From Halohasta litorea (lineage in GTDB: Archaea; Halobacteriota; Halobacteria; Halobacteriales; Haloferacaceae), in NCBI RefSeq assembly GCF_024494645.1, contig NZ_JANHDJ010000002.1, forward strand, positions 620,001-684,000: a stretch of DNA of 64,000 nt, read 5' to 3'. A program made the position numbers and the translations under genes. Below are positions 41,727-59,402 of this stretch, piece by piece; position 1 is the stretch's first letter; every line of letters starts with the position of its first letter. The notes beneath the pieces were generated by a model. That model was given only the letters and a program-made list of their open reading frames with translations. It did not search any database and had not been told where the DNA came from.

Positions 41727-42386
41727 ATGACCTCTGTTGATGCCACTAGCGCGTTTACCTCGGTCAGAGAAACGCTTGAAAAAGCAGGAATAGAAGACGA
41801 CTTCTTCTTCTTAGATCTTATCGCCTCCCGTCTATTACTAGAACGAGTCGGCGAATCGACTAATCTGGATTGGTGGGAGTCCCGAGTCCTGTCTAAGACT
41901 GGCCGTACCCGTCTGTCTGAAGTAACCCCAAAAACACAGCTAAAGTCCCGAATTACTCTCGCGTTGAAAGTCGGGCGCAAAGCAGAATCAGATCGCCTTC
42001 CTGATGACTCAATTTCGCTGTTTTACTTTGGTCCGCAGATAGAATCTCGTATCACCGCTGCTATTGATGAGCTTGAAAGCAACGACGATCTGACGTTGGA
42101 GCCACTGGAAAATTTATCAATCGATTCGCTGGAAGAGGGATGGACTGACGCTATTATTACCGAAACTGCATCAAACATCTCAGGGACGGATACTCCAGAA
42201 TCTCAGCAGAACCCGGCCCCTGGCGACTCTTATTTAATCAACGAGAGTGGTTATACTCAATCAGAGGTTGAACCCGACAAGTGGAGAATTCTCACAACCC
42301 TCCTCCAGGGATACGGCCAATGTACCGATCAGCTTCAGGTTCCGTACTATACCCTTGAGTCAGAGCTTAAATCGGAGAGCGCGTGA
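41727..42386 (+). CDS. brxE: BrxE-like protein, first gene of BREX locus
   Basis: The ATG at 41727 (MTSVDATSAF) gives 219 residues. FFFLDLIASRLLLERVGES (about 25-43), LDWWESRVLSKTG (about 46-58) and VTPKTQLKSRITLAL (about 66-80) match the pattern of BrxE proteins: 'RLLxxxLGE', 'WWxS', then an alanine-type helical pair and 'LFxLPxxxE' (here SLFYFGPQIE). BrxE is best known from BREX type 6, with unknown activity. It is nine bases upstream of brxA, so one operon. The match is recalled from the family, not searched. Confidence 0.62.
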   Translation: MTSVDATSAFTSVRETLEKAGIEDDFFFLDLIASRLLLERVGESTNLDWWESRVLSKTGRTRLSEVTPKTQLKSRITLALKVGRKAESDRLPDDSISLFYFGPQIESRITAAIDELESNDDLTLEPLENLSIDSLEEGWTDAIITETASNISGTDTPESQQNPAPGDSYLINESGYTQSEVEPDKWRILTTLLQGYGQCTDQLQVPYYTLESELKSESA

Positions 42387-42395
42387 TGTGTTCAT

Positions 42396-43208
42396 ATGAG
42401 CAATGAACACATCGAGCCGGAAGACGGGGAAGGAGTACAATCTGAAGAGAGCCTCGATCCGAAAATAGCCCACCACAGCACGTACATCGACGAGACAAAA
42501 CGGATTCTCCAAACGTATGTTGAATGCGGTTCTTACGAAGATTTGGAACACCAAGTCATTGAGGGGAATATCCTGAATAAGAATACTGAGGAGTATCGGA
42601 AAAACATTCTTCGAGAAGTTACGCGCAGACACATTCCTGACAAAGAGGAGTACATCGAAACCCCGCTAATGCACGCAGTAACCTCGGATATCCGTAGTGA
42701 CGTTATCGACTGGTGTCTCTACTACGAGTTCGCACAAGATCCATTCATCCGGCGCATTACGACCGATTTCCTCTACCCCGAATTTGAGCGTGGAACGCTC
42801 TCCGTACAGGCAGTCGACATCGTCGAATTCATTGAATCGATCCAAAACAACTACGCCGATCTTCAGGACCGCTCGGATTCAACAATCAACGAAGCCGCCA
42901 CAAAATACCTCACTGCACTTCGGAACTTCGGACTTCTAGAGGGAACTCAACGGAAGGAATTCGCAGTTACACACGTTCCGGATGAGGCTTTCGCGTACGT
43001 AGTGTACCGACTCTTCGAAAAAGGTGCGAAATCTGCAACGGAGATCCTTGAGCACGAAGACTGGAAATTGTTCCTAATGAATGAGTCAGAGGTACAGCGA
43101 CGGATTCGTGATATCTCCCCCTTGTATATTAGCTATGAGAAACGCGGTTCTACACAACGACTGGTGAAAAAGTATGATAGCATGGAGGATCTAATCGATG
43201 CCTTCTGA
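42396..43208 (+). CDS. brxA: BREX protein BrxA
   Basis: The protein has 270 residues. The segment after residue ~30 (HHSTYIDETKRILQTYVEC, GNILNKNTEEYRKNILREV, ETPLMHAVTSDIRSDVIDW) matches the DUF1819/BrxA family, whose structure is a small helical DNA-binding protein in Escherichia coli BREX. The stop overlaps the ATG of brxB. The N-terminal 25 residues are acidic and extra relative to bacterial BrxA. Confidence 0.8.
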   Translation: MSNEHIEPEDGEGVQSEESLDPKIAHHSTYIDETKRILQTYVECGSYEDLEHQVIEGNILNKNTEEYRKNILREVTRRHIPDKEEYIETPLMHAVTSDIRSDVIDWCLYYEFAQDPFIRRITTDFLYPEFERGTLSVQAVDIVEFIESIQNNYADLQDRSDSTINEAATKYLTALRNFGLLEGTQRKEFAVTHVPDEAFAYVVYRLFEKGAKSATEILEHEDWKLFLMNESEVQRRIRDISPLYISYEKRGSTQRLVKKYDSMEDLIDAF

Positions 43209-43767
43209 TTTTCAGGAACGGCTCGAAGAAGTCGAACGGCTTGTCCGAGATGAACGGGACGAGGTCGGAAGGCGGGCAGGTGTCCCATTCATTGTATTTA
43301 CCTACAATCCCGCCGACGAAATCGAAGTCGACGAAGAGGTTCGAAACCTAATTGACAAACTGGAGTACCACGACCAAACTGTCGCAGCAATCGATATGCG
43401 TGAATTGGTCTTCAATATTCTCGAAGACCGTGGCATATTAGAGAACGTAATCGAACTTGAACGACGAGATCGAGAACAGCTACTGGACGGGCTGAAATCA
43501 TCGTTGCTAGACGATGGGAAGATGGGGAAACTGGCATCCGAAATCGCTGCTCAGGCGGAAGACGCTGACACGGTCATCGTCTACCGTATGGGTATTCTAT
43601 ATCCATTCGCTAGCGCTTCAACATTAATGGGACAATTAGAGACGAATACACCGGACGACACACCTATTGTATTTTCTTATCCAGCGAAAGTAGATGACCG
43701 GAGTTTAAGATTCCTCGATGAATCTGAGGGAACATATTATCGAGCAAGAGTGATTGGACATGAGTAA
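43198..43767 (+). CDS. brxB: BREX protein BrxB
   Basis: The protein has 189 residues, normal for DUF1788/BrxB. It shows PFIVFTYNPADEIEVDEEV near residue 24, then 'VAAIDMRELVFNIL' and the strand TVIVYRMGILYPFASASTL, typical of BrxB in BREX loci. Its exact job is unknown. BrxB is required for BREX defence in other species. It overlaps brxA at the start and brxC at the end. Confidence 0.8.
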   Translation: MPSDFQERLEEVERLVRDERDEVGRRAGVPFIVFTYNPADEIEVDEEVRNLIDKLEYHDQTVAAIDMRELVFNILEDRGILENVIELERRDREQLLDGLKSSLLDDGKMGKLASEIAAQAEDADTVIVYRMGILYPFASASTLMGQLETNTPDDTPIVFSYPAKVDDRSLRFLDESEGTYYRARVIGHE

Positions 43768-46700
43768 TACTACATCCCCCCACCAGATTCACGAGATCTT
43801 CTACCGGCCAATTAATCGGAAGATTGATCGAGTCGTCAAAGTCGACAACGATGAACCAGGCGTCGTCAAGAAAGAACTTGAGGAGTACATCCTCACCCCA
43901 CAGCTTGAACGGCACTTCTCAGACGCGCTAGAAGCCGTCATCGACACGGAACACACACAGACAGAAGACGTCGGAATGTGGGTCTCCGGATTCTTTGGCT
44001 CAGGGAAAAGCCACTTCATGAAGATCCTTGGTCATGTCTTGGAGAACCGAAAATTCGGGGATACCCGTGCGGCCGAAATGTTCCGAGACCGTATCGAAGG
44101 GAACGAAATGCTCGACGGGGCAGTCTCGTCGGTCACGACAAAATTCGAGTCGGAGGTGATGATGTTCCAGATCGGAGCGAAAGCTGACGCCACCGGGAGT
44201 GAGTCAATCACCGAGATCATTCACCGAGAGTTCAACATATCCCGTGGCTATGCCTCGATGCCTTGGGTCGCTCAGATGGAGCAGCAACTCGAATCACGTG
44301 GTGTGTACGATGAGTTTGTCGAAACCATCGAATCGAATACGGGGAAAGATTGGACAGAAGCTCGGAAAGATGCATTCTTTGTTCGGTCGGATATGGAGAC
44401 CGCATTAGTCGAGGCAACCGATGATTTCGACAACGAAGACGAGGCGACCCGGGCAATCGACGACGTCCAGGATAATGTCCTGATCAACGCGTCGACCCTT
44501 GCTGAGGATATGGTCAACTATGTCGAACAACAAGAGACGGAGACCGGTGACAACCACCGATACTTCGTCTTCATCGATGAAATCTCTCAGTTCATTGGTG
44601 ATGACGGGCAGCTCCTCTTAGAACTCCAGAGTATCGTTGAGGAATTCGGGCAGAAGGGTAAAGGGAAGGTCTTCCTGGGAGTTACTTCCCAAGAGCAGCT
44701 CCAGCAACTCATTCCCGGCGTACTCGAAAAAGAAGCCGAAGAATCAAAGGTCATAGATCGTTTTCCACATCGGTTTGACCTCACTTCCGAGAATCTCGAT
44801 AAGGTAGTTCGTGACCGTGTGCTTAGCAAGAAGGGTGAATTCAGAGGTGCTATCGGAGACCTCTATGATGAACACGAAGGTATCCTTTCTGCTAGATACA
44901 AACTCGACTCTAGCCAGAGCCTGAAACCGATCACTCGGGAGAACTTCATTGATTGCTACCCGTTCCTTCCCTACCAGCTTGACATCCTTCCAGAGATGTT
45001 CAAGGCACTCGGGAAAGGTACTGATGACCAACTCGCTGGCAGCGAGCGTACACTCATCGACGTCACACAAAGCGTCCTCAAAGACGAGGACCACCTCTAT
45101 AACGACGAACTCGGGGCACTTGTGACGCTGGACATGATCTTCGACGAGATCAGTAACGACATTCCTAACAGCGACGTGCAATCGATTCGAGAGGCACGAC
45201 CGAAAGACGTAGATCACGAAACTGCACGTCGGGTTCTCAAATCACTCTACCTGCTTCAACAACTCGCCTGGATCCCAAATACAGCCGACAACATTGCGAC
45301 GTCACTCCAGACCGAACTCGGACCTACCCAGCAGTTGGAAAGCAGTGTTGAAGACACACTTGATGCTCTTGTCAATGCCGGGTATGTGGGTCGAAGCGAA
45401 GAAGGATACCGGTTCCTCCGTGAGACCGAACGTGAACTCGAAAACGAGATCAAGGGCATCGAGGTCGGTCCAGGTGACATTCGCCGCTCCTCAAAGCGGT
45501 TCCTGAATGATATCCTTGACGAAACATCTCGAATCAACTACGAGGGAAAGACCTTCAAAGTGAACTTGAGCATCGACGGGGAGGAAATCACGTCAAAGGG
45601 CCACGTCAACCTAAAAACGTACTCTCCGATTTACCAGCGCTACGAAGATCTTGACCCAGATGGCCTGAAGACGCAGAGCTTCAGCGAGGATGATACGCTG
45701 TATTGGATCGCCGACAACGAGAAACAGCACAATATCTATCAAAAGCTAAAATCGATCTTCCAGATCAACACCGTTGTCAAAGAAAAACGCGGCAACCAAC
45801 TTAGTCAAGAAGAGCAAGAGGCCCTCGGTCAGAAACAGGAAGACCTCCAGCGGCTCCGTAACGAAGTCGAACGTGAATTCAAACGGAGCTTCCAGCGTGG
45901 GGTTCTCATCTACAACGGCGACACCGAAGAGTTCGACACGACAAACACCTCTCTTTCGTCGCTCGTCGCACGAAAGACCGATAACGCCATCCCAAAGGTA
46001 TTCACCAGCTTCAAACATGGCTCTGCGACGGTCAGAGAACGTCACATTGAGCAGATATTCGGCGATCTCGCTGGGTCGTCGAATCCATCAGTCTTCTCAG
46101 ACTTGGGCGTTGTTCAAGACGGCGAACTCATCGCTGAGGCCCGTATCGCTTCGGAAGTCGAAGATGAAATCCAACGCCGCGAGAAAGCAGGTGAATCCCG
46201 CGGCGGAAGTGACCTGATTGACCACTTTGGTGAACCACCGTATGGGTGGGGCCGAGAGGTTGTCCGTCTCGCTGCAGCCGTACTCTTCCGGAATGGATCG
46301 ATCATCCCAACATACAAAGAACGAACCTACGGGACGTACACAGAAGACGGCGCACAGGAACTGTTCACCCAAGTTACGAAGTTCAAGTCTACCTCGTTCG
46401 ACGAGCGCGAAACCGTCGACATTGAAACACGGACAAACGCCAAGCAACTCCTGGATCGTCTGTTCGACCGGAAGGTCAAATCGACGGATCAGGCTGTCGA
46501 CGAAGGCATTCGAGAGGAAGCCAACGACTGGGTCTCTACTACCAGCACACTGCTTTCACAGCTCCGTCGTGTTGGGTTCCCGCTCGCAGACGACATTGAA
46601 CAGTTCCAAACCCGACTCCAAAACCTGATTCAACAACCCACATCGGCCAAACGAATTAAACAGTTCGTCAAGTTCGAAACAGAGCTGGAAGGCCTCACGA

Positions 46701-47404
46701 AGACCGCGAAAGATGTCTCCCAATTCTGTGGCGAGACAGGCGGACAAAATCGTCTCAAAGAATACGAGACGATACAGCAATTCATAACGGCTGAGTGGGA
46801 GTCGCTCACTGATGAGGCAGACAGTCATCCAGGACTCGTTGACATCAGCGATGAAGCCCGCGACGCCGCTGAGCGCGTCGCAAACACCCTGGATACCGAG
46901 GGGGTAATTAGCCAGTGGAACAACGTCAAGACGGATTATCGGAACGCAGCAGAAGCCTTTGCCGCGACGTATGAATCCCTGTATGCGAAACGTTACGAGA
47001 CATACAGCGACGCTATCGATTCGGTTAAATCATACGCAGGATCCGAAATCGATGAAGACGATCTCAACTCAGCGTTATCTGACTTGACAGCCCGACAGGG
47101 TGACGGAACGGTCGATCTGGATATCTCGAACACAGACCACATCAATCCAGATCCCTCGCTCACCCGTCTGATCGAACACATCCAGACCGTCGACGCATAC
47201 GAAAACAGCGCGAAAACCGATATCGACAACTTGGGCGGAGGTTGGGGCGGTGGAACGGTCCGCGAGAGCGTCGACATCGACGCCATCTTCGGGAACATTG
47301 TCGTTACGGACTCAACTGATGTCGAAAAACCGATTTCTGACTTACGAGCCGAGGTTGAGGAACTCCTCGATCAAGAAGGCGACGTCGAAATTCGGTTTAG
47401 GTAA
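43760..47404 (+). CDS. brxC: BREX ATPase BrxC/PglY
   Basis: The ATG at 43760 overlaps the brxB stop, giving 1214 residues. An upstream TTG is less likely. It has a P-loop GFFGSGKS (about 77-84) and Walker B FVFIDEIS (about 270-277), consistent with the DUF6079/PglY AAA family, and long helical regions (for example YDEHEGILSARYKLDSSQSL). A coiled-coil and Gly-rich end precede the C-terminus (GGGWGGGTV). BrxC is thought to be the large ATPase in BREX and is essential in several systems. Codon use is as in its neighbours, with no sign of truncation. Confidence 0.85.
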   Translation: MSNTTSPHQIHEIFYRPINRKIDRVVKVDNDEPGVVKKELEEYILTPQLERHFSDALEAVIDTEHTQTEDVGMWVSGFFGSGKSHFMKILGHVLENRKFGDTRAAEMFRDRIEGNEMLDGAVSSVTTKFESEVMMFQIGAKADATGSESITEIIHREFNISRGYASMPWVAQMEQQLESRGVYDEFVETIESNTGKDWTEARKDAFFVRSDMETALVEATDDFDNEDEATRAIDDVQDNVLINASTLAEDMVNYVEQQETETGDNHRYFVFIDEISQFIGDDGQLLLELQSIVEEFGQKGKGKVFLGVTSQEQLQQLIPGVLEKEAEESKVIDRFPHRFDLTSENLDKVVRDRVLSKKGEFRGAIGDLYDEHEGILSARYKLDSSQSLKPITRENFIDCYPFLPYQLDILPEMFKALGKGTDDQLAGSERTLIDVTQSVLKDEDHLYNDELGALVTLDMIFDEISNDIPNSDVQSIREARPKDVDHETARRVLKSLYLLQQLAWIPNTADNIATSLQTELGPTQQLESSVEDTLDALVNAGYVGRSEEGYRFLRETERELENEIKGIEVGPGDIRRSSKRFLNDILDETSRINYEGKTFKVNLSIDGEEITSKGHVNLKTYSPIYQRYEDLDPDGLKTQSFSEDDTLYWIADNEKQHNIYQKLKSIFQINTVVKEKRGNQLSQEEQEALGQKQEDLQRLRNEVEREFKRSFQRGVLIYNGDTEEFDTTNTSLSSLVARKTDNAIPKVFTSFKHGSATVRERHIEQIFGDLAGSSNPSVFSDLGVVQDGELIAEARIASEVEDEIQRREKAGESRGGSDLIDHFGEPPYGWGREVVRLAAAVLFRNGSIIPTYKERTYGTYTEDGAQELFTQVTKFKSTSFDERETVDIETRTNAKQLLDRLFDRKVKSTDQAVDEGIREEANDWVSTTSTLLSQLRRVGFPLADDIEQFQTRLQNLIQQPTSAKRIKQFVKFETELEGLTKTAKDVSQFCGETGGQNRLKEYETIQQFITAEWESLTDEADSHPGLVDISDEARDAAERVANTLDTEGVISQWNNVKTDYRNAAEAFAATYESLYAKRYETYSDAIDSVKSYAGSEIDEDDLNSALSDLTARQGDGTVDLDISNTDHINPDPSLTRLIEHIQTVDAYENSAKTDIDNLGGGWGGGTVRESVDIDAIFGNIVVTDSTDVEKPISDLRAEVEELLDQEGDVEIRFR

Positions 47405-47468: not shown

Positions 47469-48110
47469 CTATTCAATTAAACCAGCGTGGTCGCGTAGTT
47501 TGTAGTAGAAATTCCCGATATCTGCCGTAAGGCCTTCTTCGTGTAGCTGCTGTTCTACATACTTCCGGATCGACCTCTGGTCATCTGGTTTGCTGACATC
47601 GACCTCGATATTGGAGTCTTTGTCGTATGTGAATACACCTCCGTCCTTATGTGTGAAGTCAGACGGGACGACGTGGGTCAAGCGTTCTTCTTGAAGCACC
47701 GAGGGGACTGGCCGACCATCTAGCTCGTGCAGGCTCTCAACTAGCTGCTTACGGTCCAATTCTGCTGGCAGATAGAGACGTCGGTCTCCTTCGGAGTGGC
47801 TGACTACGTCGCCATGAAAATCTAGTAATCCTTCAGCAACTAGGTCGTCTAGACGTCTTCGGACCGTACCCAAGTCGCCGTACACTGTGAGGTCGAAAAC
47901 ATCACGAGGTGTAACAAAAACCTCTGCTGGATGTCCTACTTTTTCTACCGGGTCAATCGATTCTGTATGTAGGACTTCAGCTTGTAGACCGCCGATTTGC
48001 CGCCGTAATCCATGTTTTGTACGGCCAGCTTCAACTGTTATAAACTCATTCTTGTCGTAGTACACTGCCGATATTATCGCCCACAATTCAAGGTCTGTAT
48101 AGGTCGTCAC
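47469..48110 (-). CDS. Winged-helix-type protein inverted inside BREX locus, possible regulator
   Basis: The upstream in-frame start is a TTG, but the GTG at 48110 (VTTYTDLELW) follows an AAATATTTT element by about 30 bases, so it is chosen, giving 213 residues. Residues about 65-115 look like a winged helix (VFVTPRDVFDLTVYGDLGTVRRRLDDLVAEGLLDF, with wing HSEGDRRLYLP). The C-terminal ~60 residues are charged and helical (SIRKYVEQQLHEEGL). It lies between brxC and pglX on the opposite strand. A BREX regulator role by position is an inference. It is not a WYL protein, unlike the known BrxR. Confidence 0.6.
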   Translation of the reverse strand: MTTYTDLELWAIISAVYYDKNEFITVEAGRTKHGLRRQIGGLQAEVLHTESIDPVEKVGHPAEVFVTPRDVFDLTVYGDLGTVRRRLDDLVAEGLLDFHGDVVSHSEGDRRLYLPAELDRKQLVESLHELDGRPVPSVLQEERLTHVVPSDFTHKDGGVFTYDKDSNIEVDVSKPDDQRSIRKYVEQQLHEEGLTADIGNFYYKLRDHAGLIE

Positions 48111-48208
48111 TGTACTCTTACTATAGACACACCCATACAAATATTTTGCGCCTCTATAAGAAAAAAGACGGATTTTGTATCTTTGATCAGCCAAAGGGTT
48201 ACCCGCAA

Positions 48209-48318: not shown

Positions 48319-51300
48319 ATGTCCACTACACACGGTCAACCCGGCCTCTCGTCGGATCAACGCTCGACTATTCGAAGTGCGATTCTCAGTACGCGACACA
48401 CGCTTGAAGACGAGCTTCGACGTCAACTCGAAAAGTACGGTATCTATGAGGCGAAGAAGCTTCCACTCGATAAATTAAGCCACCTCTCTGCCGAGGGAAT
48501 TCATACTCGCCGTACACTGGATGCGGCTATCGAACGAGAACTCGAATCGACTGAAGGCGATCTGGAGCGGTCGATCACTAACTACGTCCGCGAGGCGACA
48601 AAGACTTATCTCAACCGATTTGTCGCACTGAAAGCAATCGAGGTTCGTGGCCTCGTTGAGGAAACTATCACAGAGCGGCCGGAGTACGGCAATCGGTCGT
48701 ACATGCACCATACTGTCGCCGAAATCACCGGTGAGCTTACAAATGCTCCCGACGACGGCTTCGGTGCCGCACTCGACCTCGCGTATCAAGAGATCGGGGC
48801 GGAGATTCGGATGATATTCGAGGAGTCCGAACACACTGCTATCGACCTCGATGTGCAGGTCAGAGAAGAGGTACTCGACGAATTAGATGCGATTGCTGAC
48901 GATGCTTGGGAGAGTGACGAGGCACTGGGGTGGGTGTACCAGTATTTCGGTGAGGATGAGCGAATAGACATTGATGAGCGCATCAAAAAAGAGAATTACA
49001 AGGTTGCTGGCACAGACATAGCTACAAAAACCCAGCTATTTACTCCGCGGCACATCGTTGAGTGGATAGTCGATAATTCCTTAGGACGGACGTGGCTGGA
49101 GATGTGTGGTAAAAAGACAAATATCGACTCGGAGAACAATTGTTTCTTTCTCTCTCCTTTGGAAGAATCGCTGCAAGAGCGTGAGCCTAAACCGGTAGAG
49201 GAAATATCAGTACTTGATCCGGCGTGTGGTAGCGGCCATATGCTGACCTACGCCTTTGACGTGTTGTATCAGATGTACTCGGAAGAAGGTGAGATACCAA
49301 AAAAATATATCCCGCGAGAAATTCTCCGCAATAATCTCTACGGTGTCGATATCGATTCAGGTGCAGCTCAAATCGCTGCTCTATCACTGTACCTCAAAGC
49401 AAAGCAAAAATCACCAGATGTAGCGATTCCAAAATTAAATGTTGTATCGGCAGATGCAGTACTCGTGAACGGCGACAGAAAACAGGCTATTATCAGCCGT
49501 GCTGAGACGGAATTAGAACGCGAAATATTAGAACAAATATGGGGAAGTTTTGATAATATCCGCGAACTTGGAAGTTTAATTCAAATTGAAGACCAGATTG
49601 ACGAGTTATTAGAAAAACACCACGAGGATTTTGCTGCACAGGGCCAAGCCCAATTTACACCTGAAGGAGAAATAACAACGCAGGCTACCTTCGTAAACGA
49701 AGGGCGAGAGGATTCGTGGGCAGGGCTGAAAAAGCGTCTAATGGACAATGTTCGTACACTTGCCCGCGATGGATTAGAACAGAATGATCCTATTGAGGAG
49801 ATGTTTGCTAATGAGGTAGAAAAGACAGTTGAACTGCTAGATCTACTTGTTGACGAGTATGATGTTGTAGTGAGTAATCCACCCTATCTTCAGAGTAAAA
49901 AGATGGGAGAGGATCTAAAAGAGTTTGTGCGTTCTAACTACAAGGGCAAAACGGACGTGTATGCCGCTTTTATAGAGCGATGTCTTTCGTTCACGGACAG
50001 TGAGGGATATTCAGCAACTATCACACCTGCAAACTTTATGTTTCTCTACTATTCTCGTGGGTTACGAAAAAAACTATTAGAAGAGTCAAATTTCGTTGAA
50101 GCCCTTCATCTCAGTGACCGTGACGAGGCATATATGAATATTGCGTCAGTTGCTACGCCACTGGACGGAGAGCCTATGAAATCCCGTTTCACTAGGATTG
50201 TCGAATCAGATGATAAACTTGCGGCTTCACAATCTGTTATTGATAACCTCCGCAAAACAGGTTATGACAATAGAGTATACGTATTCTCTCAAGAACGAAT
50301 ACATGACATCGGACGTCGGCCGTTCCTCTATTGGTTTGGAGAAGAAACATTAAGTCTATTCTCAGATTACCCTAGCTTGGATGAAAATGCAGAAATCAAA
50401 TCAGGACTATCTACGTCAGATGATGACCGATTTGTTAGAAAGGTGTGGGAGTTACCAAGTTCTCAAATAGGACGTCGTTACCGACGATTTCAAAAAAGTG
50501 GAACCGATTCCCCGTACTACGACTATCCAGAGGACTTCGTCGACTGGGGTACAAACGGACAGGACTTACGCGACGCGGATGGAAATTTCCGCAATGAAGA
50601 GTTCTATTTTAAACAAGGTGTGTCATTTCGAGCATTCGGAAACCATTTTACTGCTAGAATACAGGCGGATGATGCTATATTCTCACACAAATCACATTCT
50701 GTATTTTCTGATGTTTTATCTGATAAGATTCTCCTGGCGAATCTCAATTCAACGCTACACCGGTTCATCGCCAACGGGCTGAATCCGGGTCTTAGCTTTG
50801 AGGTTGGAGACGGAAAGCGCCTCCCAATAAAACCGGAGTACGACCGTGCCGAAGAACTAGAATCTCTTATTGAAGTTGGAATCGAAAATAGACTTCTTAT
50901 TTCAGAGATGAGAGAAACAAGTGCTGACTACGATGGTAAGCAAGTTGCGGCTGTGCTTTCTGGAGGTCTGACAAATTTTCTTATAGCTGAGGATCGGATG
51001 AGAGCCTGCATCCTCATTGCACATGGAGCATCGGACACAATTCTCTTTGAGGAATACAATATCTCAAAAGGAACCCGGGAGCAGATGTACGCGAACTTAC
51101 CAAAGAACACGACTGATTTCCCAGTTGTAAAGGGTTGTCACGTTGAGTACCACGATACACTATCCGAACACGTGACGCTTGAGTCCACCACTGACGAGCA
51201 GCTCACCAAGGCAGTTGAGACTTTGAAATTGATGGACCAACCCTCGTTAAGGGAGGCTGCACTGGAGACTGAATTGTCACCGCTAACGGTCGCCCAATTA

Positions 51301-52002
51301 CGTTATGAGCACAACCTGTACTCAGATGAGGAGTTCACCGAAGCAGCGGGTCGTATTGTCTCATTGATTATTGGTTCTGTATTGGGCCGGTGGAGTACGG
51401 GTTGCGATGTTCCAACGGTAGATGACGAATTCCTCACTTTCGATTTAGGAGACAAGAGAATTGAATGGCTGGTTGATGAATCCATCAAGGCGCTATTCGA
51501 CGACCCATCAGCGGCTGAGAATGAGTTGGAGGATGTGTTGAATCACCATCCAATTGAGTGGATTCGTGAGCGATTCTTTCGGTATCACCATGTTGATGAA
51601 TATAAACCCCGCGGAGAACGGAGTCCGATTTATTGGCAACTTGAAAGTCCAGACGGGGCCTTCAGCTGTTTCGTCTACTACCACGATATAGATAATAATA
51701 CGCTCCCAAAACTAAGAGGACAGTATCTGGATCCACGTATTAGCGAACTCGGAAATGAACTCGAAACCTTGAACGCTCAAACCAGTGGTGACAACCCAGA
51801 CAAGGACCTTTTGAACAGGAAAGAACAAGTTCAGAACGACCTCGACGATATCAGAGAGTTCCGAAATACTATTGACGAAATGATTGACGACGGTGTCACA
51901 GTTGATATCGAGAAGGGCATCTGGGAAAACATCAAAGAGTGGGACAAGTACGAAGTCCTCGAAACTGGCCTGCCGAAATTGAAATCAGGTTATTCCCGGT
52001 AA
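48319..52002 (+). CDS. pglX: BREX adenine-N6 DNA methyltransferase PglX
   Basis: The protein has 1227 residues, normal for PglX. Motif I is DPACGSGHM (300-308) and motif IV is NPPY (520-523), so this is a gamma-type N6-adenine methyltransferase. Helical N-terminal and large C-terminal regions (target recognition) surround the catalytic core. In BREX it marks self DNA at a non-palindromic site and is needed for exclusion. The gene has its own promoter and a divergent regulator-like gene upstream, instead of following brxC directly. The recognition site cannot be read from sequence. Confidence 0.9.
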   Translation: MSTTHGQPGLSSDQRSTIRSAILSTRHTLEDELRRQLEKYGIYEAKKLPLDKLSHLSAEGIHTRRTLDAAIERELESTEGDLERSITNYVREATKTYLNRFVALKAIEVRGLVEETITERPEYGNRSYMHHTVAEITGELTNAPDDGFGAALDLAYQEIGAEIRMIFEESEHTAIDLDVQVREEVLDELDAIADDAWESDEALGWVYQYFGEDERIDIDERIKKENYKVAGTDIATKTQLFTPRHIVEWIVDNSLGRTWLEMCGKKTNIDSENNCFFLSPLEESLQEREPKPVEEISVLDPACGSGHMLTYAFDVLYQMYSEEGEIPKKYIPREILRNNLYGVDIDSGAAQIAALSLYLKAKQKSPDVAIPKLNVVSADAVLVNGDRKQAIISRAETELEREILEQIWGSFDNIRELGSLIQIEDQIDELLEKHHEDFAAQGQAQFTPEGEITTQATFVNEGREDSWAGLKKRLMDNVRTLARDGLEQNDPIEEMFANEVEKTVELLDLLVDEYDVVVSNPPYLQSKKMGEDLKEFVRSNYKGKTDVYAAFIERCLSFTDSEGYSATITPANFMFLYYSRGLRKKLLEESNFVEALHLSDRDEAYMNIASVATPLDGEPMKSRFTRIVESDDKLAASQSVIDNLRKTGYDNRVYVFSQERIHDIGRRPFLYWFGEETLSLFSDYPSLDENAEIKSGLSTSDDDRFVRKVWELPSSQIGRRYRRFQKSGTDSPYYDYPEDFVDWGTNGQDLRDADGNFRNEEFYFKQGVSFRAFGNHFTARIQADDAIFSHKSHSVFSDVLSDKILLANLNSTLHRFIANGLNPGLSFEVGDGKRLPIKPEYDRAEELESLIEVGIENRLLISEMRETSADYDGKQVAAVLSGGLTNFLIAEDRMRACILIAHGASDTILFEEYNISKGTREQMYANLPKNTTDFPVVKGCHVEYHDTLSEHVTLESTTDEQLTKAVETLKLMDQPSLREAALETELSPLTVAQLRYEHNLYSDEEFTEAAGRIVSLIIGSVLGRWSTGCDVPTVDDEFLTFDLGDKRIEWLVDESIKALFDDPSAAENELEDVLNHHPIEWIRERFFRYHHVDEYKPRGERSPIYWQLESPDGAFSCFVYYHDIDNNTLPKLRGQYLDPRISELGNELETLNAQTSGDNPDKDLLNRKEQVQNDLDDIREFRNTIDEMIDDGVTVDIEKGIWENIKEWDKYEVLETGLPKLKSGYSR

Positions 52003-52069
52003 TGTTGTCCGTGTCGTAGCTAGCACGGAAGGTTTATGTTGATTTCTTGAGTTTCGGTTATATATTCAA

Positions 52070-52261
52070 ATGGTGGAACCTGGTGCAACCTCTGATGAGA
52101 TTCGAGAGGAGATATTTGATTCATTCACGTCGAGAATTGAAGAGAGCGACATTAACGAGGAAACAGCCGAAACAATACTCACCGAAACCTTAGCAGATGA
52201 TCCACCACAAGAATTCTCGGAGGAGCTTATAGCGATAGTTAGTGAAGACGATGAAGCTTGA
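52070..52261 (+). CDS. Small acidic protein before SMC-like ATPase
   Basis: The protein has 63 residues and is mainly helical and acidic (SDEIREEIFDSFTSRIEESD). It lies 67 bases after pglX. Its last codons overlap the ATG at 52251 of the following gene, so they are coupled. No family recognised. A small partner that binds the ATPase is possible. Confidence 0.55.
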   Translation: MVEPGATSDEIREEIFDSFTSRIEESDINEETAETILTETLADDPPQEFSEELIAIVSEDDEA

Positions 52262-54743
52262 GAAACTTGATATCAAGAATTTTCGAGGAATAAAGGGAAG
52301 CTATACGTTCGAGCCCGAGGGCAATAATGCGATTATCGTCGGACCCAATGGTTCTGGAAAAAGTTCGATATTGGAAGCTATCAACTACCTTCTCACAAAT
52401 AGAATAAGCCAATTAGATCGGGAGGGGATGAAGAACGTCAAGAAGCAGAATGTTATCCCCAACATCGACGCAACTGGCGATTGTGCAGTATCTGGTGTCT
52501 TCAAACATGCCGAAGATGAAAATCAAGCTTCCGTAACTCGATTAGTTAATTCGAATGATCTGGAACCGCCGAAAGAGGATCTACCATTCTCGCTACAAAG
52601 AACAATTGATACTGCGCTTCAAGGTCAGCACATCCTTACACGAGATGATCTACTGGACTTGATAATTGCCCAACCAGGGTCCCGGAGGGAGGTTCTTAGT
52701 GAACTACTAGATCTACCAGACATCGATGAACGACGCCTCGCTCTCCAACGAACTCGAAAAGCGCTCAAAGATCAACAGGAAAAGGCGAAAGCATCCCGAA
52801 ACACATCGTGCGAGCGATTAAAAGATCTCACAGGATCGAATGCATCTGATTCTACTGGACTTCGAACAGATACTCTTGAGTCAATCAATCATCTTAGAGA
52901 TTCGTTCGGTGGGGATTCTGTGGATAATATTGATCCTGAAACGGTTCGAGAAGAGATTGGTTCACCTGCGGAAGCGGTGTCAACGCAAGCTCTTCAACGA
53001 GAGCAACCGCGGAAGGAGTTAGAACAGTTCGCGGACTGGTTGGAAGAGTTACGAGCTGATCTTCCCGAACAAATTGAACAACTGGAAGCCTTACTCAAGG
53101 ATTATCAGCAGAAAGAGGCTTCGGAAGTTGCCGTGTCAAGGCTCGAATTGCTGGAACAGGGAGAAGAGGTCATCACCTATGAGACAGACATATGTCCGCT
53201 CTGTGAGCAAGACTGGCTGGGAGATCGGTCCTTACTAGAAGATGTGCGTCAACGACGTGAGAAACTTCACGAATTCAGGGAGATCGTGGACGACATTAAT
53301 CAGCTACAAGATAACCTCAGAACGGATTTCCAACAGGGATTAAACTACTTAGAGTACTTAACAAAGGAGTTGGAGGAAGACGAATACCCAGAAGTCGAGA
53401 ATCTATCAATATTATTTGGAGAAATAAAAAAATCATCAGAGCTGCTGTCTGGTGATTTACTCGAAGATATCGATATTACCCTGCGAAATCTTCCTGTTTT
53501 CGAGTTGAATGATTTAAAAATAAATGTCGGGATTAGTGGAGGAATTAGAGAAACAAAATCTCTGCAATCAAGAGCCGAAAATCTTGGGGACCTCAGTGAC
53601 ACCGAACAGCGATACGAGCGTCTCAAGTCAATTGCTGATCGGTGGATGGAATACAAAAATTTGGACACGAAAGTTGACCGGCTGGCTTCCCTTGCCTCTG
53701 ATACAGAGACTGCCGAGTCGGCGTTTATAAACGCCCGACGAAAAGTAATTGGAGAGATTTACAATGACATTACAGATCGAGTTGAAACGTATTATAATTC
53801 AATTCATCCAGATGAATCAGATACTTCGACTTCGATTGTAGTTACAGAGACAGGTGCTGATCTACAAAAGGAGTTCTACGATGCAGGAGAGTATCCACCA
53901 CATTCAGTGTTCAGTGAGGGCCACTTAGACTCCTTAGGGCTCTGTCTCCATCTTGCCCTTGCCGACTATCTTCAGCAAGACGAAAAATCACTCCTGCTCT
54001 TAGATGATGTGGTGATGTCCGTGGATCAGAACCACCGTCTCGAAATTGCTCGAATGATCGCTGAAGAGTTCGCCGAAGACTACCAAGTGATCATTACAAC
54101 CCATGATGAATTATGGGCCGAGCAATTGTCAAGTCAGGGAGCGTTAAAGGGTGGACCACAGATACGACTGAAGGAATGGTCCTTTGATGGTGGTTTGAAT
54201 GAGAGCCGGGGCTACATTGATGTCTATGAACAGTGGGAAACTGTCGAAGCTGCGATGGAATCTGATCAGATGGAACGAGCAGCTCACGAACTTCGGTATG
54301 CTACAGAACGGATGCTCCAGCAGTGTGCAGTATCGTTAGGAGGGAAAGTAGAATATGATCCTCGTCTTAGACACACGCTTAGCGATTTTAAAGACTCAGT
54401 TTGTCGCCGGTTGGGTACTTTGACTGGAAGGGCGAAAAACAGTCTTGACCAATCTGGCGAGATGTTCGCAGAGGCGAATGAGTTGGATAACGCGTATGGA
54501 TCGATTCTTAACGATCTGGGACAACAACTCAATAAGGTGAACCGTCGTGTTCACTGGACCCCTGGTCGATGGCTGACGCTAAGTCCAGACGAATTTGAGG
54601 AAGTGTTTGAAGCACACAAGGCAGCTTACGAACTCTTGTACTGCGATAAATGTGGATCGTGTATTCGCTACGAGGAATTCGGGGGAGATTACCATGAGCT
54701 TCGTTGCAATTGCCGAGAGCACTACGATATCCAATGGAACTAG
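52251..54743 (+). CDS. SMC/Rad50-like ATPase with CxxC hook motif, inserted in BREX
   Basis: The ATG at 52251 (MKLEKLDIKNFRGIKG) is preferred over an upstream GTG, giving 830 residues. It has Walker A GPNGSGKSS (about 31-39), long coiled-coil arms, a CPLCEQDW motif near the middle (about 315) that resembles a Rad50 zinc hook, and Walker B SLLLLDDVVMSVD (about 580) with a following TTHDELW His loop. After the ATPase head there are ~200 extra residues, ending with CDKCGSC and CNCREH zinc-like pairs (about 797-820). Proteins of this kind bind or process DNA ends, often with an Mre11-like nuclease; a metallophosphoesterase gene lies at the start of the same locus. It is located between pglX and pglZ, an unusual place. 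Confidence 0.82.
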   Translation: MKLEKLDIKNFRGIKGSYTFEPEGNNAIIVGPNGSGKSSILEAINYLLTNRISQLDREGMKNVKKQNVIPNIDATGDCAVSGVFKHAEDENQASVTRLVNSNDLEPPKEDLPFSLQRTIDTALQGQHILTRDDLLDLIIAQPGSRREVLSELLDLPDIDERRLALQRTRKALKDQQEKAKASRNTSCERLKDLTGSNASDSTGLRTDTLESINHLRDSFGGDSVDNIDPETVREEIGSPAEAVSTQALQREQPRKELEQFADWLEELRADLPEQIEQLEALLKDYQQKEASEVAVSRLELLEQGEEVITYETDICPLCEQDWLGDRSLLEDVRQRREKLHEFREIVDDINQLQDNLRTDFQQGLNYLEYLTKELEEDEYPEVENLSILFGEIKKSSELLSGDLLEDIDITLRNLPVFELNDLKINVGISGGIRETKSLQSRAENLGDLSDTEQRYERLKSIADRWMEYKNLDTKVDRLASLASDTETAESAFINARRKVIGEIYNDITDRVETYYNSIHPDESDTSTSIVVTETGADLQKEFYDAGEYPPHSVFSEGHLDSLGLCLHLALADYLQQDEKSLLLLDDVVMSVDQNHRLEIARMIAEEFAEDYQVIITTHDELWAEQLSSQGALKGGPQIRLKEWSFDGGLNESRGYIDVYEQWETVEAAMESDQMERAAHELRYATERMLQQCAVSLGGKVEYDPRLRHTLSDFKDSVCRRLGTLTGRAKNSLDQSGEMFAEANELDNAYGSILNDLGQQLNKVNRRVHWTPGRWLTLSPDEFEEVFEAHKAAYELLYCDKCGSCIRYEEFGGDYHELRCNCREHYDIQWN

Positions 54744-54824: not shown

Positions 54825-57251
54825 ATGGGAGATCTTGCGGATAGCATTATTACTGAACTCAGACAAAAATTTGACCGACATCCTGTCTGGGTGTGGTACG
54901 ACGCACAAGAAAAGTATAGAGGTGTTCTTAACGAGGTCGAATCCGACCTTGACAACGTTACGCTCGCACGCTACGACGGTAGCTACTTTGAGCTAAAGCT
55001 CCGCCTCCGAAACGAGGATCCGAACTACGAGCGGAACTGGCTGTTCTACATCCCCGAATCACGGAACGACGCCGAGTGGTTCCGCGACATCCACGCACTC
55101 GGTCGACAGTACCGTGTCGGTCAGGACATCGACGACACACCGGTGACGCAATTCCTCGTCGAGCATGACGAAGAGATCCCAGATGCGTACGAAGACTGGG
55201 GACAGAACCGAGAAGTACAGCGTCTAGCCTTCTTTTGCGTTCTCTTCGATACCGCTGGTCCAGCGACCGACGATTGGGTTCGAACCTATCTCGCCGAGCC
55301 TGAAGACTACCGTGAGCAGATCGAGGACAACGCAATGGCCGACGCCTGGGACGCACAACTCCGAGAGGAATACGGAGTCACCGCAGGACTCGATCCGAAA
55401 GAGCTAGCGACACAGCTCCTTTTCGGCGAAGTGGCAAGCCGAGCACCGACGTCCCGGTACGATGAACTTGCGGCAGACGACACACGCGCTGCTGCGGCAT
55501 TCTGTGATGGCTGGCAGCAGTACGCCCCTGCTGAATTCACACGCTACGCACAGATAATCGAGGAGGACTACGACCTTGCAGAGGCTGTCATCGACTCCGA
55601 CCGAATTCACTGGGACGCCACGGCGTTCAAAGGCATCGACATGGGCCTCATTCGGCTCGTTATGGATCGACTCGCCGAAGAGACGTACGTTGACCTCCCG
55701 GAGATCGCGGCAGACCTACAACAGACGGTCACCGAACGGCGGGACACCTTCTGGAGCAATGAGGACCTCGTCGATTGGTCGGTCCCTGCCTTGGCGGTTG
55801 ATACGCTCCAGCTGGTTGGAACAGTCGACACTGACGAAGCCAAGACACTCTCGTCGGAAGAACTCGCTCAGAAATACACGAGGAGCGACGGCTGGTGGCA
55901 AGTCGACGCAGCCTATCGACAGTATATTAATGCGACTCAGAAGGCAACGTATCCGTATCCGAATGAGACGAAGGTGAAACAGCGGGTTACCAAACACTAC
56001 ATGTCCTTCCTCCAAGGAGTGAATCGTCCGCTTGCAGACATCCTAAGCAACGACCCGACTCTCGGCACACCGCAGACCTCGTTCTATGAAGAATTTGCGG
56101 ATCTTGAGGCTGGCACCGCGATCATCATCTGTGACGGGCTTCGCTACGAACTTGCCGAAGCGATCAAGCAAAACCTCGAACGACGGACTAATTTCGAACA
56201 GAACCTGAGCGCAGTCAGCGCTGCGTTACCTTCCATCACCGAGGTGGGGATGGCTGCACACCTTCCGGGTGAACTCGGCCTCTCACTCGAAGATGATGAC
56301 CTTGTCGTGACTAGTGGCGGTGAGGAAATGTCCGGTAAATCAGATCGTGTCGACCGACTCAGTGCCGCTGGCTTCGAAGTCACAGATATGGATGAGATGA
56401 GCACTGTTTCATTGGAGGATCTGACGGGAGCGGACCCGGTTCCTCGTGTAGTCTACTCGGGTACAATAGATAAGCTTGGAGAGAGCCTCGACGATGACGC
56501 CGCCTTTAGCCAAGTCGCCTCCCACGTCGACGACGTCGAACGAACGGTCCAACGGCTGAAACAGGCTGGGTACACGCGGTTTGTCATCACGAGCGACCAC
56601 GGATTCCTATACACGGACCGGTTGTCCGATGATCTTAAAGTGGAGTCTCCCGATCTCGCGCCGGTCGTCAAACGACGATTCGCAGCTGCTGACAGTGATG
56701 CTCCACTTGTCGATACGGACGAATTCATTGAGGTGGATCACAATTCGTTGTCCGACCTCGGAATCAACGCTCCAGATCTCAAGCTACTATTTCCCAGGAG
56801 TATCGCCTGTTTCAAAGCACAGGGAGGTAATATGCGGTACTTCCATGGAGGAATTTCGCTCCAAGAGCTTCTCGTCCCGTGTTTGACCGTAACTACAGGA
56901 GAAATCGAAGAAAGTGCGTCGATCAGCTATGATGTTTCGATCCCGGACCCGATCACGAACTCAATCATCTCTGTCGAGATCGAAGCCAAAAGCGGGCAAG
57001 TAGCGTTCGACCCATCACCGATACTCGAAGTCCGTGCTAACATCGACAACGAACCTGTTGCGGATCCTGTTTCGATGGAAATCTCGCCCGGAACTAATAG
57101 TGGACGTATACGGCTAAAACAGGGAGCAATCTCTGGAGAAAGTTCCGTTCAGTTCGAAGTCATTGATACCGACACCAGGGAAACAATCACTCGGAAAACG
57201 GTTGAGCTCGATCTTCTGTTTGGAGATGACGATATGGGATTCGACGTCTAA
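54825..57251 (+). CDS. pglZ: BREX phosphatase-fold protein PglZ
   Basis: The protein has 808 residues. The alkaline-phosphatase-fold motifs are visible: AIIICDGLRYE (about 432-442) carries the first metal-binding Asp at 437, and FVITSDHGFLYT (about 586-597) the DHG at 591-593. The C-terminal ~130 residues form a beta-rich domain. PglZ is a core BREX protein that acts with PglX and is needed for both methylation and exclusion in other systems. It starts 81 bases after the SMC-like gene, and brxL follows after 123 bases. Confidence 0.9.
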   Translation: MGDLADSIITELRQKFDRHPVWVWYDAQEKYRGVLNEVESDLDNVTLARYDGSYFELKLRLRNEDPNYERNWLFYIPESRNDAEWFRDIHALGRQYRVGQDIDDTPVTQFLVEHDEEIPDAYEDWGQNREVQRLAFFCVLFDTAGPATDDWVRTYLAEPEDYREQIEDNAMADAWDAQLREEYGVTAGLDPKELATQLLFGEVASRAPTSRYDELAADDTRAAAAFCDGWQQYAPAEFTRYAQIIEEDYDLAEAVIDSDRIHWDATAFKGIDMGLIRLVMDRLAEETYVDLPEIAADLQQTVTERRDTFWSNEDLVDWSVPALAVDTLQLVGTVDTDEAKTLSSEELAQKYTRSDGWWQVDAAYRQYINATQKATYPYPNETKVKQRVTKHYMSFLQGVNRPLADILSNDPTLGTPQTSFYEEFADLEAGTAIIICDGLRYELAEAIKQNLERRTNFEQNLSAVSAALPSITEVGMAAHLPGELGLSLEDDDLVVTSGGEEMSGKSDRVDRLSAAGFEVTDMDEMSTVSLEDLTGADPVPRVVYSGTIDKLGESLDDDAAFSQVASHVDDVERTVQRLKQAGYTRFVITSDHGFLYTDRLSDDLKVESPDLAPVVKRRFAAADSDAPLVDTDEFIEVDHNSLSDLGINAPDLKLLFPRSIACFKAQGGNMRYFHGGISLQELLVPCLTVTTGEIEESASISYDVSIPDPITNSIISVEIEAKSGQVAFDPSPILEVRANIDNEPVADPVSMEISPGTNSGRIRLKQGAISGESSVQFEVIDTDTRETITRKTVELDLLFGDDDMGFDV

Positions 57252-57374
57252 GCACGAAAGAGATCCACCACTCATCAATAACAGAGCTATTGAATTGGAG
57301 ATCGATACAATCTCTTGCTTTCGTACTTGGGATGATCGACACGAATATGCCTCCGGCTACACTTTCGCTAAACA

Positions 57375-59402
57375 ATGACAACAGAGGACGTCGATAAGAA
57401 AGCCCTCGACGTCTTTCCCGGACGTGTCGTCCGGAAGGACCTCGTCCAGGATATTAAGTCCGGAGTGAACGTCCCAACCTACGTTCTCGAATATCTCATC
57501 GGACAATACTGCGCAACTGACGATGAGGAATCTTTGGAGGAGGGACTTGAAAAAGTTAAACAGATTCTATCGAAGCACTACGTCCGTCCCGACGAAGCTG
57601 AGTTCGTCAAGAGTGAAGTACGTGAGCGTGGTCGATATCGGGTTATTGATAAAATAACAGTCAGACTCGACGAGCAGCAGGATGCCTACATTGGTTCGTT
57701 CGTTAATCTTGGATTGAATGGTATCGAGATTAATGAACACCTTGTCAGCAAACATCCTAAACTCTTAGGCGGTGGTGTGTGGGCCATCATTGACTTAGAG
57801 TACCTACCAGATAACGCGAACAGTCCGAAGAGTATCTTCGGTATTGATTCGTTCAAACCCATCCAAGTGTCGAATCTCGATCTTGATCAATTGAAAGATC
57901 GTCGACGGGAGTTCACCCGTGATGAGTGGATGAACCTCATTCTCCAGAGTGTCGGGTATGACCCCACTTCATTCAGTGACCGCGAGAAACTGCTCTTTTT
58001 GACTCGCTGTCTCCCGCTCGTCGAGTTCAATTACAACTACGTAGAGCTAGGACCTCGAGGAACTGGTAAGAGCTATCTTTACAGAGAAATTAGTCCCCAC
58101 TCGATACTCATTTCTGGTGGGAAAACCACTGTCGCGAAGCTTTTCTTGAATCTTAACACTGGACGAATTGGGCTCGTTGGCCGGTGGGACGTAGTAGCCT
58201 TTGACGAAGTCGGTGGTCTCAAATTCACAGACTCTGAAGCCGTTCAGATGCTCAAGGACTACATGGAGTCGGGGAGCTTCTCCCGCGGTACCGAGGAACT
58301 TACCGCACAAGCCTCGATGGTCTATATTGGGAACATAGATCTGGATGTGAAGAGCGTTCTCAAGAGTTCCCATCTGTTTGAACCATTCCCTGATGAGATG
58401 CAAGACCTCGCCCTCATCGACCGATTCCATTACTACCTCCCTGGTTGGGAAGTCCCGAAGATGCGTTCCGAATTCTTTGGCGATCAGTTCGGATTCATCG
58501 TCGATTACTTCGCCGAGTTCGTCCGTGAGCTGCGGAAAGAATCATACGGAGATGCCATCAACGAGGAGTTTGCGTTTGGAGATCACCTAAACCAACGAGA
58601 CGAGAAGGCTGTTCGAAAAACGGTATCTGGCTTACTTAAACTGCTTCACCCACATGGAGAGTACACAAAAGAAGAGCTCCGCGAATATCTTGAATTCGCT
58701 ATGGAGGGACGTCGTCGTATCAAAGAGCAATTAAAACGAATTGGTGGAATGGAGTACCGAGCAGTTGAATTCTCGTACCTCGATCTAAACACGAAAGAAG
58801 AGATCTACGTCACTGTCCGAGAGGAAGCTGATGAATCCCTTATTCCACCTGGAACACAGCAGGCAGGGACTGTATATACTATTGGAGATAGTGACGGTCG
58901 ACATGCTCCATTCCGAATCGAGACACAGACACTCCCTGGGTCCGGTAAAACGAGCATTTCAGGCACACCTGGGAAACTGATGAAAGAGTCCTTCGGAACC
59001 GCGTGCGATTATCTACAGGCAAATATGCGGGAGCTCAGTCGTGACGAGACCTTAGCCGAGTACGATATCAACGTACAAATTCTCAACCCATCCGATGCGA
59101 ATGAAGGTGGAGAAACAAGTGTTGGTCTCCTCGTTGGGATCGTCTCAGGTATCCTTGACCGACCTGTCCGCTCCCAAGCAGTTGTCCTTGGGGCAATGAG
59201 CCTAATGGGTGAACTGGTTGCAGTGAATTCCCTCGTCGACAAGCTCCAGTTAGCGGCTGACTCAGGAGCAAAGACAGTGTTACTGCCTGCAAAGAATAAA
59301 GGAGACTTCGCAAATATACCAGACGAGCTTCTCGATCAGCTTCAACTTGTATTCTATACTGATCCGCTGGATGCAGCTAGTAAGGCGATTGAACTGGAGT
59401 AA
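57375..59402 (+). CDS. brxL: BREX Lon-like ATPase BrxL
   Basis: The protein has 675 residues. The AAA+ part has GPRGTGKS (about 226-233) and Walker B VVAFDEVGGL (about 273-282). The C-terminal ~170 residues form the Lon-protease-like domain: GETSVGLLVGIVSG carries the likely Ser, and LVDKLQLAADSGAKTVLLP the likely Lys. BrxL forms large rings that bind DNA in the type 1 BREX system. Its presence, together with brxA-brxB-brxC-pglX-pglZ, indicates a type 1 BREX. Confidence 0.9.
   Translation: MTTEDVDKKALDVFPGRVVRKDLVQDIKSGVNVPTYVLEYLIGQYCATDDEESLEEGLEKVKQILSKHYVRPDEAEFVKSEVRERGRYRVIDKITVRLDEQQDAYIGSFVNLGLNGIEINEHLVSKHPKLLGGGVWAIIDLEYLPDNANSPKSIFGIDSFKPIQVSNLDLDQLKDRRREFTRDEWMNLILQSVGYDPTSFSDREKLLFLTRCLPLVEFNYNYVELGPRGTGKSYLYREISPHSILISGGKTTVAKLFLNLNTGRIGLVGRWDVVAFDEVGGLKFTDSEAVQMLKDYMESGSFSRGTEELTAQASMVYIGNIDLDVKSVLKSSHLFEPFPDEMQDLALIDRFHYYLPGWEVPKMRSEFFGDQFGFIVDYFAEFVRELRKESYGDAINEEFAFGDHLNQRDEKAVRKTVSGLLKLLHPHGEYTKEELREYLEFAMEGRRRIKEQLKRIGGMEYRAVEFSYLDLNTKEEIYVTVREEADESLIPPGTQQAGTVYTIGDSDGRHAPFRIETQTLPGSGKTSISGTPGKLMKESFGTACDYLQANMRELSRDETLAEYDINVQILNPSDANEGGETSVGLLVGIVSGILDRPVRSQAVVLGAMSLMGELVAVNSLVDKLQLAADSGAKTVLLPAKNKGDFANIPDELLDQLQLVFYTDPLDAASKAIELE

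What the first reader, a model, noticed from the sequence alone, without database searches (positions are those of the whole stretch)
41727..59402. Complete BREX locus with an inserted SMC/Rad50-like ATPase, brxE and inverted regulator
The genes brxA, brxB, brxC, pglX, pglZ and brxL identify a type 1-like BREX, but with brxE (known from type 6) at the front, a winged-helix gene on the opposite strand between brxC and pglX, and a small acidic ORF plus an SMC-like ATPase with CxxC hook motif between pglX and pglZ. The divergent Mre11-like metallophosphoesterase at 40291 could partner the SMC-like ATPase (Mre11-Rad50 style). This makes a composite subtype.
Basis: partly seen in the sequence, partly recalled or inferred. 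Interest (0 to 1): 0.74.

Follow-up and report, generated by a model that had tools for sequence, protein, structure and literature searches.

The report
Haloarchaeal BREX with swappable ATPase cassette
A complete virus-defence (BREX) operon of a salt-loving archaeon carries, in a slot where related operons hold quite different genes, a self-contained two-gene ATPase cassette, while the neighbouring phosphoesterase gene turns out to belong to the BREX system itself and not to the ATPase.

Summary
The BREX locus is real and intact: brxE-brxA-brxB-brxC-pglX-pglZ-brxL, all supported by profile HMMs. It is not a composite subtype. BrxE leads every related haloarchaeal locus whose 5' end was readable, so this is the ordinary haloarchaeal type-1-like BREX.

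The Mre11-Rad50 idea fails. The divergent metallophosphoesterase (MPE) is tied to BREX, not to the ATPase. It sits head-to-head with brxE in 15 of 18 loci of this clade (Fisher p=1.5e-21 over 391 genomes), and its divergence tracks brxE (r=0.84) and the core but not pglX (r=0.10). Only the window has both MPE and the ATPase; the other two BREX loci with the ATPase lack MPE.

The SMC-like ATPase is one gene of a mobile two-gene cassette. A short acidic ORF overlaps or abuts its start in all 17 relatives checked, including alphaproteobacteria. The cassette carries its own promoter-like box, is equally similar (75% DNA) to a BREX-borne and a BREX-free copy, and fills the pglX-pglZ slot. Other loci fill that slot with TATA-binding proteins, nucleases or GmrSD.

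The inverted "regulator" is an orphan ORF. The MPE link and the cassette are the new parts; their mechanisms are inferred.

The parts
40291..41607 (-). Mre11-like metallophosphoesterase (MPE), about 438 aa, divergent from brxE; N-terminal domain also found in large restriction-type proteins
   Evidence: Pfam Metallophos E=9e-12; full-length relatives next to brxE in 15 of 18 clade loci; start placed at the conserved ATG
41608..41726 (.). 119-bp divergent intergenic region with a conserved TTCTAA box about 26 nt before the brxE ATG and a TTTAATAT-like box about 29 nt before the MPE ATG on the other strand (putative leaderless promoters)
   Evidence: alignment of 14 loci; promoter role inferred
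41727..42386 (+). brxE (BrxE family, not the type-6 equivalog)
   Evidence: NF033447 105 bits (cut-off 40); NF033448 41 bits (cut-off 80)
42396..43208 (+). brxA
   Evidence: PF08849 E=1.5e-16; PADLOC BrxA 3e-19
43198..43767 (+). brxB
   Evidence: PF08747 E=4e-17
43754..47404 (+). brxC
   Evidence: NF033441 888 bits (cut-off 400)
47469..48194 (-). orphan ORF, 241 aa, in cargo slot 1 (brxC-pglX); function unknown
   Evidence: no match in three libraries; no relative in the 391-genome class sample
48319..52002 (+). pglX, N6-adenine methyltransferase
   Evidence: PADLOC PglX E=4e-140; Eco57I 2e-28
52020..52069 (+). conserved upstream box (AAGGTTTATG..GATTTCTTGAGTTTC) of the ATPase cassette, putative own promoter
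   Evidence: shared with the BREX-free copy in L018, where pglX homology is absent; promoter role inferred
52070..52261 (+). small acidic protein (63 aa, pI 4.05), first gene of the cassette
   Evidence: an equivalent short ORF overlaps or abuts the ATPase start in all 17 relatives checked
52242..54743 (+). Rad50/SMC-like ABC ATPase with CPLC zinc hook and C-terminal domain plus Zn ribbon
   Evidence: SMC_N E=3e-22; alignment A2 of 15 sequences; PDB profile matches to SMC3 and Rad50
54825..57251 (+). pglZ
   Evidence: PF08665 E=4e-22; TIGR02687 177 bits, below its cut-off of 270
57375..59402 (+). brxL (Lon-related form)
   Evidence: TIGR02653 894 bits (cut-off 628); PADLOC BrxL 3e-284

Best explanation
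This is the ordinary haloarchaeal type-1-like BREX: BrxE, BrxA, BrxB, BrxC, PglX, PglZ, BrxL. It has two features not described for it in the survey I read. First, a divergent metallophosphoesterase is a near-constant eighth gene of this clade and most likely acts in or next to the BREX effector step, as an auxiliary nuclease or phosphodiesterase on viral DNA or a nucleotide signal. Second, the two gaps flanking pglX are cargo slots. In the window, slot 2 holds a mobile two-gene cassette: a short acidic protein plus a zinc-hook Rad50-like ABC ATPase. This cassette most likely works on its own as a DNA- or infection-sensing backup, in the manner of PARIS or Lamassu, with the short protein as a partner or inhibitor. 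Shown here: gene content, conservation, linkage, coevolution and presence of the cassette inside and outside BREX. Inferred: that the host methylates DNA with this PglX, the MPE activity, the cassette's sensing role, and any cooperation between them.
For: HMM matches for all seven BREX proteins. Gene order conserved in the haloarchaeal type-1-like loci compared. MPE: 15 of 18 full-length copies next to brxE, Fisher p=1.5e-21; distances correlate with brxE 0.84, brxC 0.75, pglZ 0.75, but pglX 0.10; copies outside this BREX branch among the BREX-borne ones, one of them directly behind the pglZ of a different BREX-like operon in Halorarius halobius. Cargo slots: TBPs, Mrr, NucS-type, GmrSD and unknown genes in other loci. 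Cassette: small ORF joined to the ATPase in 17 of 17 relatives; BREX-free copies in G288 and G174 and on plasmids; same pglX-pglZ slot in a BREX-5 of Halorhabdus tiamatea at about 32% identity; DNA identity 75% to both BREX-borne and BREX-free copies. Precedent: an ATPase-DUF4435 (PARIS) pair added to the Salmonella BREX (PMC9009780, PMC11341690).
Against: MPE is missing from three loci of this clade (two in G367, one in G029) and from the 50%-identity haloarchaeal clade, so BREX can do without it. MPE has conserved changes at two metal-site motifs (G[S/T]HD for GNHD/E, GDEH for GHxH), so it may be weak or inactive. Adjacency alone could give correlated distances. No experimental data; structure models failed (mean pLDDT 45.5 and 31.6).
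Confidence: 0.72

Rival explanations
1. Mre11-Rad50-style pair: the MPE and the SMC-like ATPase form one nuclease complex recruited into BREX.
For: Both are present in the window; MPE's catalytic domain is Mre11-like (NCBIfam Mre11_Halo 69 bits, far below the cut-off of 550; PDB Mre11), and the ATPase has a Rad50-type hook.
Against: They share 1 of 391 genomes (p=0.54). G029 and H. tiamatea carry the ATPase in BREX without MPE; 14 MPE-BREX loci show no ATPase. Of the stand-alone ATPase cassettes only one (G372) had an MPE match within the 20-kb stretch, and that is an mre11-like gene followed by a rad50-like one.
Confidence: 0.05
2. A true composite BREX subtype in which small protein and ATPase are integral BREX subunits.
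For: The same slot is used in a type-1-like and a type-5 BREX; co-directional with pglX and pglZ.
Against: Most copies lie outside BREX (13 of 16 genomes); the cassette has its own upstream box and clean ends against the BREX-free copy; at genome level ATPase and type-1-like BREX are not significantly linked (p=0.06).
Confidence: 0.15
3. MPE is a hitchhiker: a neighbouring gene held only by the shared divergent promoter region, or a phosphoesterase without a BREX role.
For: Adjacency can by itself produce correlated divergence; it is absent from some BREX loci; two ligand motifs are changed.
Against: Retained across 5 families and many genera while the cargo genes turn over; a copy sits beside the pglZ of a different BREX-like operon in another orientation; its N-terminal domain recurs in large restriction-type proteins.
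Confidence: 0.25
4. The cassette is a Lamassu (LmuB/LmuC) system missing its effector gene.
For: Best PADLOC match of the ATPase is LmuB, E=1.8e-29 over nearly the whole profile; LmuB proteins are Rad50-like, often with a hook, and go with a small protein LmuC (PMC10586767).
Against: No LmuA-type effector recognised next to the copies examined; the small protein is about 58-97 aa with no library match; a C-terminal domain plus zinc ribbon is present; Walker B reads DD rather than the Glu-to-Gln change reported for LmuB.
Confidence: 0.2

Closest known systems
BREX type 1 (surveyed in PMC12839542)
   Same: All six core genes brxA, brxB, brxC, pglX, pglZ, brxL in canonical order
   Different: BrxE at the front; divergent MPE; cargo genes on both sides of pglX
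BREX type 6 (BrxE-containing)
   Same: BrxE family protein at the head of a type-1-like core
   Different: Below the type-6 BrxE and PglZ cut-offs; has BrxL, and none of the operon genes tested matched BrxD or the BrxHI helicase
PARIS (AriA-AriB) embedded in Salmonella BREX
   Same: ATPase-centred two-gene module embedded within a BREX operon; AriA profile matches the ATPase at E=2e-14
   Different: No TOPRIM or DUF4435 partner; the partner is a short acidic protein; the ATPase has a CPLC hook and C-terminal zinc ribbon
Lamassu / ABC-3C (LmuB)
   Same: Rad50-like ABC ATPase with hook, encoded with a small gene
   Different: No effector gene; much shorter small protein; different Walker B; extra C-terminal domain
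Mre11 nuclease
   Same: Calcineurin-like catalytic domain, DxH and GDxxD motifs
   Different: 178-aa N-terminal domain, G[S/T]HD and GDEH motifs, far below Mre11 cut-offs; linked to BREX, not Rad50

Membership tests
BREX type 1 | brxA, brxB, brxC, pglX, pglZ, brxL in one operon | tested here: met
   order conserved
BREX type 1 | N6-adenine methylation of a non-palindromic site and block of virus replication | not testable with these tools
   needs long-read methylation calls and infection assays
BREX type 6 | type-6 BrxE equivalog | tested here: not met
   NF033448 41 bits against a cut-off of 80
BREX type 6 | BrxD and BrxHI in place of BrxL | tested here: not met
   BrxL present; none of the window operon genes matched BrxD/BrxHI models
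Mre11-Rad50 complex | nuclease and ATPase genes paired across genomes | tested here: not met
   1 shared genome of 391, p=0.54; ATPase-bearing BREX loci without MPE
Lamassu | LmuA effector gene in the operon | tested here: not met
   neighbours of the window copy and of L018, L020, L124-L126
Lamassu | LmuB-type Rad50-like ATPase | tested here: inconclusive
   PADLOC LmuB E=1.8e-29, but also mad3, AriA and PtuA matches
PARIS | AriA ATPase with AriB TOPRIM/DUF4435 partner | tested here: not met
   partner is a 63-aa protein with no library match

The most novel reading that the evidence does not exclude
Haloarchaeal BREX has an eighth, lineage-specific component, a divergently transcribed metallophosphoesterase that takes part in the effector step; and the small-acidic-protein plus zinc-hook ATPase pair is an undescribed stand-alone defence family shared by haloarchaea and alphaproteobacteria that is loaded as cargo into BREX operons.
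Probability: 0.45. Interest if true: 0.66.

Novelty: new variant of a known kind. Interest (0 to 1): 0.55.

Why it matters
How BREX stops viruses is unresolved, and PglZ nuclease activity explains only part of it (PMC12205998; PMC12839542). A phosphoesterase that stays with and coevolves with one BREX clade is a direct, deletable candidate for a missing activity. The cargo slots around pglX show BREX operons acting as carriers for exchangeable defence modules in archaea, as the embedded PARIS does in Salmonella, and give a place to look for new ones. The two-gene ATPase cassette is one such candidate, small enough to test by itself.

Tried and rejected
Mre11-Rad50 pairing: rejected on distribution. 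Composite subtype or type 6: rejected. Opposite-strand ORF as a conserved regulator: no relative in the 391-genome class sample. Viral origin of MPE or ATPase: no MPE in IMG/VR; only one full-length but weak (25%) ATPase relative. The named-genome scan with a BrxC alignment returned bacterial and methanogen BREX only; tblastn found no MPE, BrxE or ATPase relative in those 80 loci, but their flanks are often short and BrxE evolves fast, so this is weak negative evidence. The C-terminal domain of the ATPase has a conserved Nx[N/R][V/I]H motif; a HEPN-like RNase role was considered but is not supported.

Full report
What is there. The window lies in a 3.8-Mb haloarchaeal genome (G000, contig C23). 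HMM scans confirm brxE, brxA, brxB, brxC, pglX, pglZ and brxL, all open and full length. Alignment of 14 loci places the brxE start at 41727 and the phosphoesterase start at 41607, leaving a 119-bp divergent region with two conserved A+T-rich boxes about 26 and 29 nt before the two start codons; a divergent pair of leaderless promoters is the natural reading, but it is inferred.

Comparison with other haloarchaea. Of 391 genomes of the class, 95 have a PglZ match over the Pfam cut-off. I fetched the type-1-like loci and mapped the window proteins on them. The order brxE-A-B-C-pglX-pglZ-brxL is constant wherever the locus is complete, and BrxE heads each of them. So BrxE does not mark a composite type here; it is standard in this lineage. 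The NCBIfam broad BrxE family is met and the type-6 equivalog is not. The survey of BREX diversity PMC12839542 likewise treats types 5 and 6 as subtypes of type 1.

The phosphoesterase. Full-length relatives (60-76% identity) exist in 18 of 391 genomes, the window's included. Fifteen lie head-to-head with brxE, in five families; two of these loci are split by contig ends, and I joined them only by gene order. Three loci of the clade lack it: both copies in G367, and G029. Genome-level association with this BREX clade: 15 both, 3 MPE only, 3 BREX only (one of these, G236, is cut off before brxE and cannot be judged), p=1.5e-21. In 12 complete loci the pairwise distances of MPE correlate with those of brxE (0.84), brxB (0.77), brxC, pglZ and brxL (0.75) and brxA (0.71), all p=0.0002 by permutation, but not pglX (0.10, p=0.25). 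pglX is the specificity gene and evidently exchanged, so the contrast shows that not every neighbour tracks the core. Distance correlation does not correct for shared ancestry, and adjacency alone could contribute. A phylogeny places the copies outside this BREX among the BREX-borne ones: one follows pglZ of a different, BREX-3-like operon on a Halorarius halobius plasmid, one follows an Eco57I-type methyltransferase and an HKD-nuclease helicase in G127, and two stand apart from BREX. The catalytic domain is Mre11-like, but GNH[D/E] reads G[S/T]HD and GHxH reads GDEH in all copies aligned; metal binding and activity may therefore be altered. The N-terminal domain recurs in 2,768-3,266-aa proteins, one shown to carry helicase and restriction-nuclease domains, and in a protein with homing-endonuclease-associated repeats, which suggests a defence-related DNA- or protein-binding role. 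The main text of PMC12839542 does not mention calcineurin or metallophosphoesterase, and a full-text search found no paper describing such a BREX gene (by titles and abstracts). The library is incomplete, so this is not proof of novelty.

The ATPase and the small protein. Relatives covering most of the ATPase occur in 16 of 391 genomes. Three are inside a BREX-type locus: the window, G029 (76%; same slot, no MPE), and the BREX-5 on plasmid pHTIA of Halorhabdus tiamatea (G079; about 32%; same slot). The rest are elsewhere; further relatives sit on plasmids of Haloarcula, Phaeobacter and Rhizobium. A short acidic ORF overlaps or abuts the ATPase start in all 17 relatives checked (for L020 the ORF was found by tblastn). 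All 15 aligned ATPases keep the P-loop, CPLC hook, signature, Walker B 'DD' and H-loop; 12 have the C-terminal domain, most of these with a zinc ribbon. The window cassette is equally similar to the BREX-borne copy in G029 (75.1% DNA) and the BREX-free copy in G288 (75.4%). Similarity to G288 starts about 50 bp before the small ORF and ends just after the ATPase stop, while similarity to G029 runs through into pglX and pglZ. This is what a self-contained mobile unit looks like.

Cargo slots. In other loci the brxC-pglX and pglX-pglZ gaps are empty or hold TATA-binding-protein paralogues, Mrr or NucS-type nucleases, GmrSD, or unknown genes, in either orientation. The opposite-strand 241-aa ORF of the window fits this pattern and has no relatives in the class sample. 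The Salmonella BREX with its embedded ATPase-DUF4435 (PARIS) pair is a described parallel (PMC9009780, PMC11341690).

Mechanism. Established for other BREX systems: PglX supplies site specificity and methylation, and PglZ is a metal-dependent nuclease that contributes to defence (PMC11341690, PMC12205998). Inferred here: MPE adds a second phosphodiesterase activity in this lineage; the ATPase cassette senses infection or unusual DNA independently and acts as a backup. The role of the short protein (inhibitor, adaptor or effector) is open. MPE and ATPase are not partners: they share one genome of 391 (p=0.54), and the other BREX loci with the ATPase have no MPE.

Limits. The genomes searched are unnamed, one per species. 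Structure prediction could only use single sequences and failed. I found no methylation or infection data for this strain.

Noticed in passing
L093:13587-14126, L094:13574-14113, L097 (two), L100:5966-6505, L102:13005-13685, L106:5930-6574, L113:12368-12916; also L120:5103-6200: TATA-binding-protein paralogues sit in the cargo slots of seven haloarchaeal BREX loci and beside another N6-methyltransferase system. They score lower against the TBP model than each genome's best TBP. A general transcription factor as BREX cargo is unexpected; it might act on the BREX promoter.
   Followed up: partly
window:39112-40197: Gene just beyond the MPE with a restriction-enzyme-like C-terminal half (PADLOC REase_II E=2e-12); an 83%-identical partial copy lies just upstream of brxE in another BREX clade (L111:3-731).
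   Followed up: partly
L224:3107-12907, L225:5009-13315, L226:741-2339, L227:3681-5243: The N-terminal domain of the MPE recurs in giant and other defence-type proteins; in L224 the giant gene stands beside a McrB-like gene pair that also neighbours MPE in Halorarius and precedes brxE in G029.
   Followed up: partly
L018, L022/L123, L024, L029, L032: A UvrD-type helicase plus PD-(D/E)XK nuclease pair recurs within about 10 kb of the ATPase cassette in several genomes.
   Followed up: no
L030:8554-15416 and L120:13278-19349: In one genome the ATPase cassette, and in another the MPE, lies directly beside an mre11-rad50-like gene pair; probably chance, untested.
   Followed up: no
window:36784-38031: Very acidic protein with a DsbA/thioredoxin-like domain (E=1.6e-9) upstream of the locus.
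   Followed up: no
L101:5946-7007, L107:5934-6995, L113:13043-14142: A 353-aa cargo protein without any Pfam or PADLOC match recurs in the pglX-pglZ slot; in L113 it appears split into two overlapping frames.
   Followed up: no
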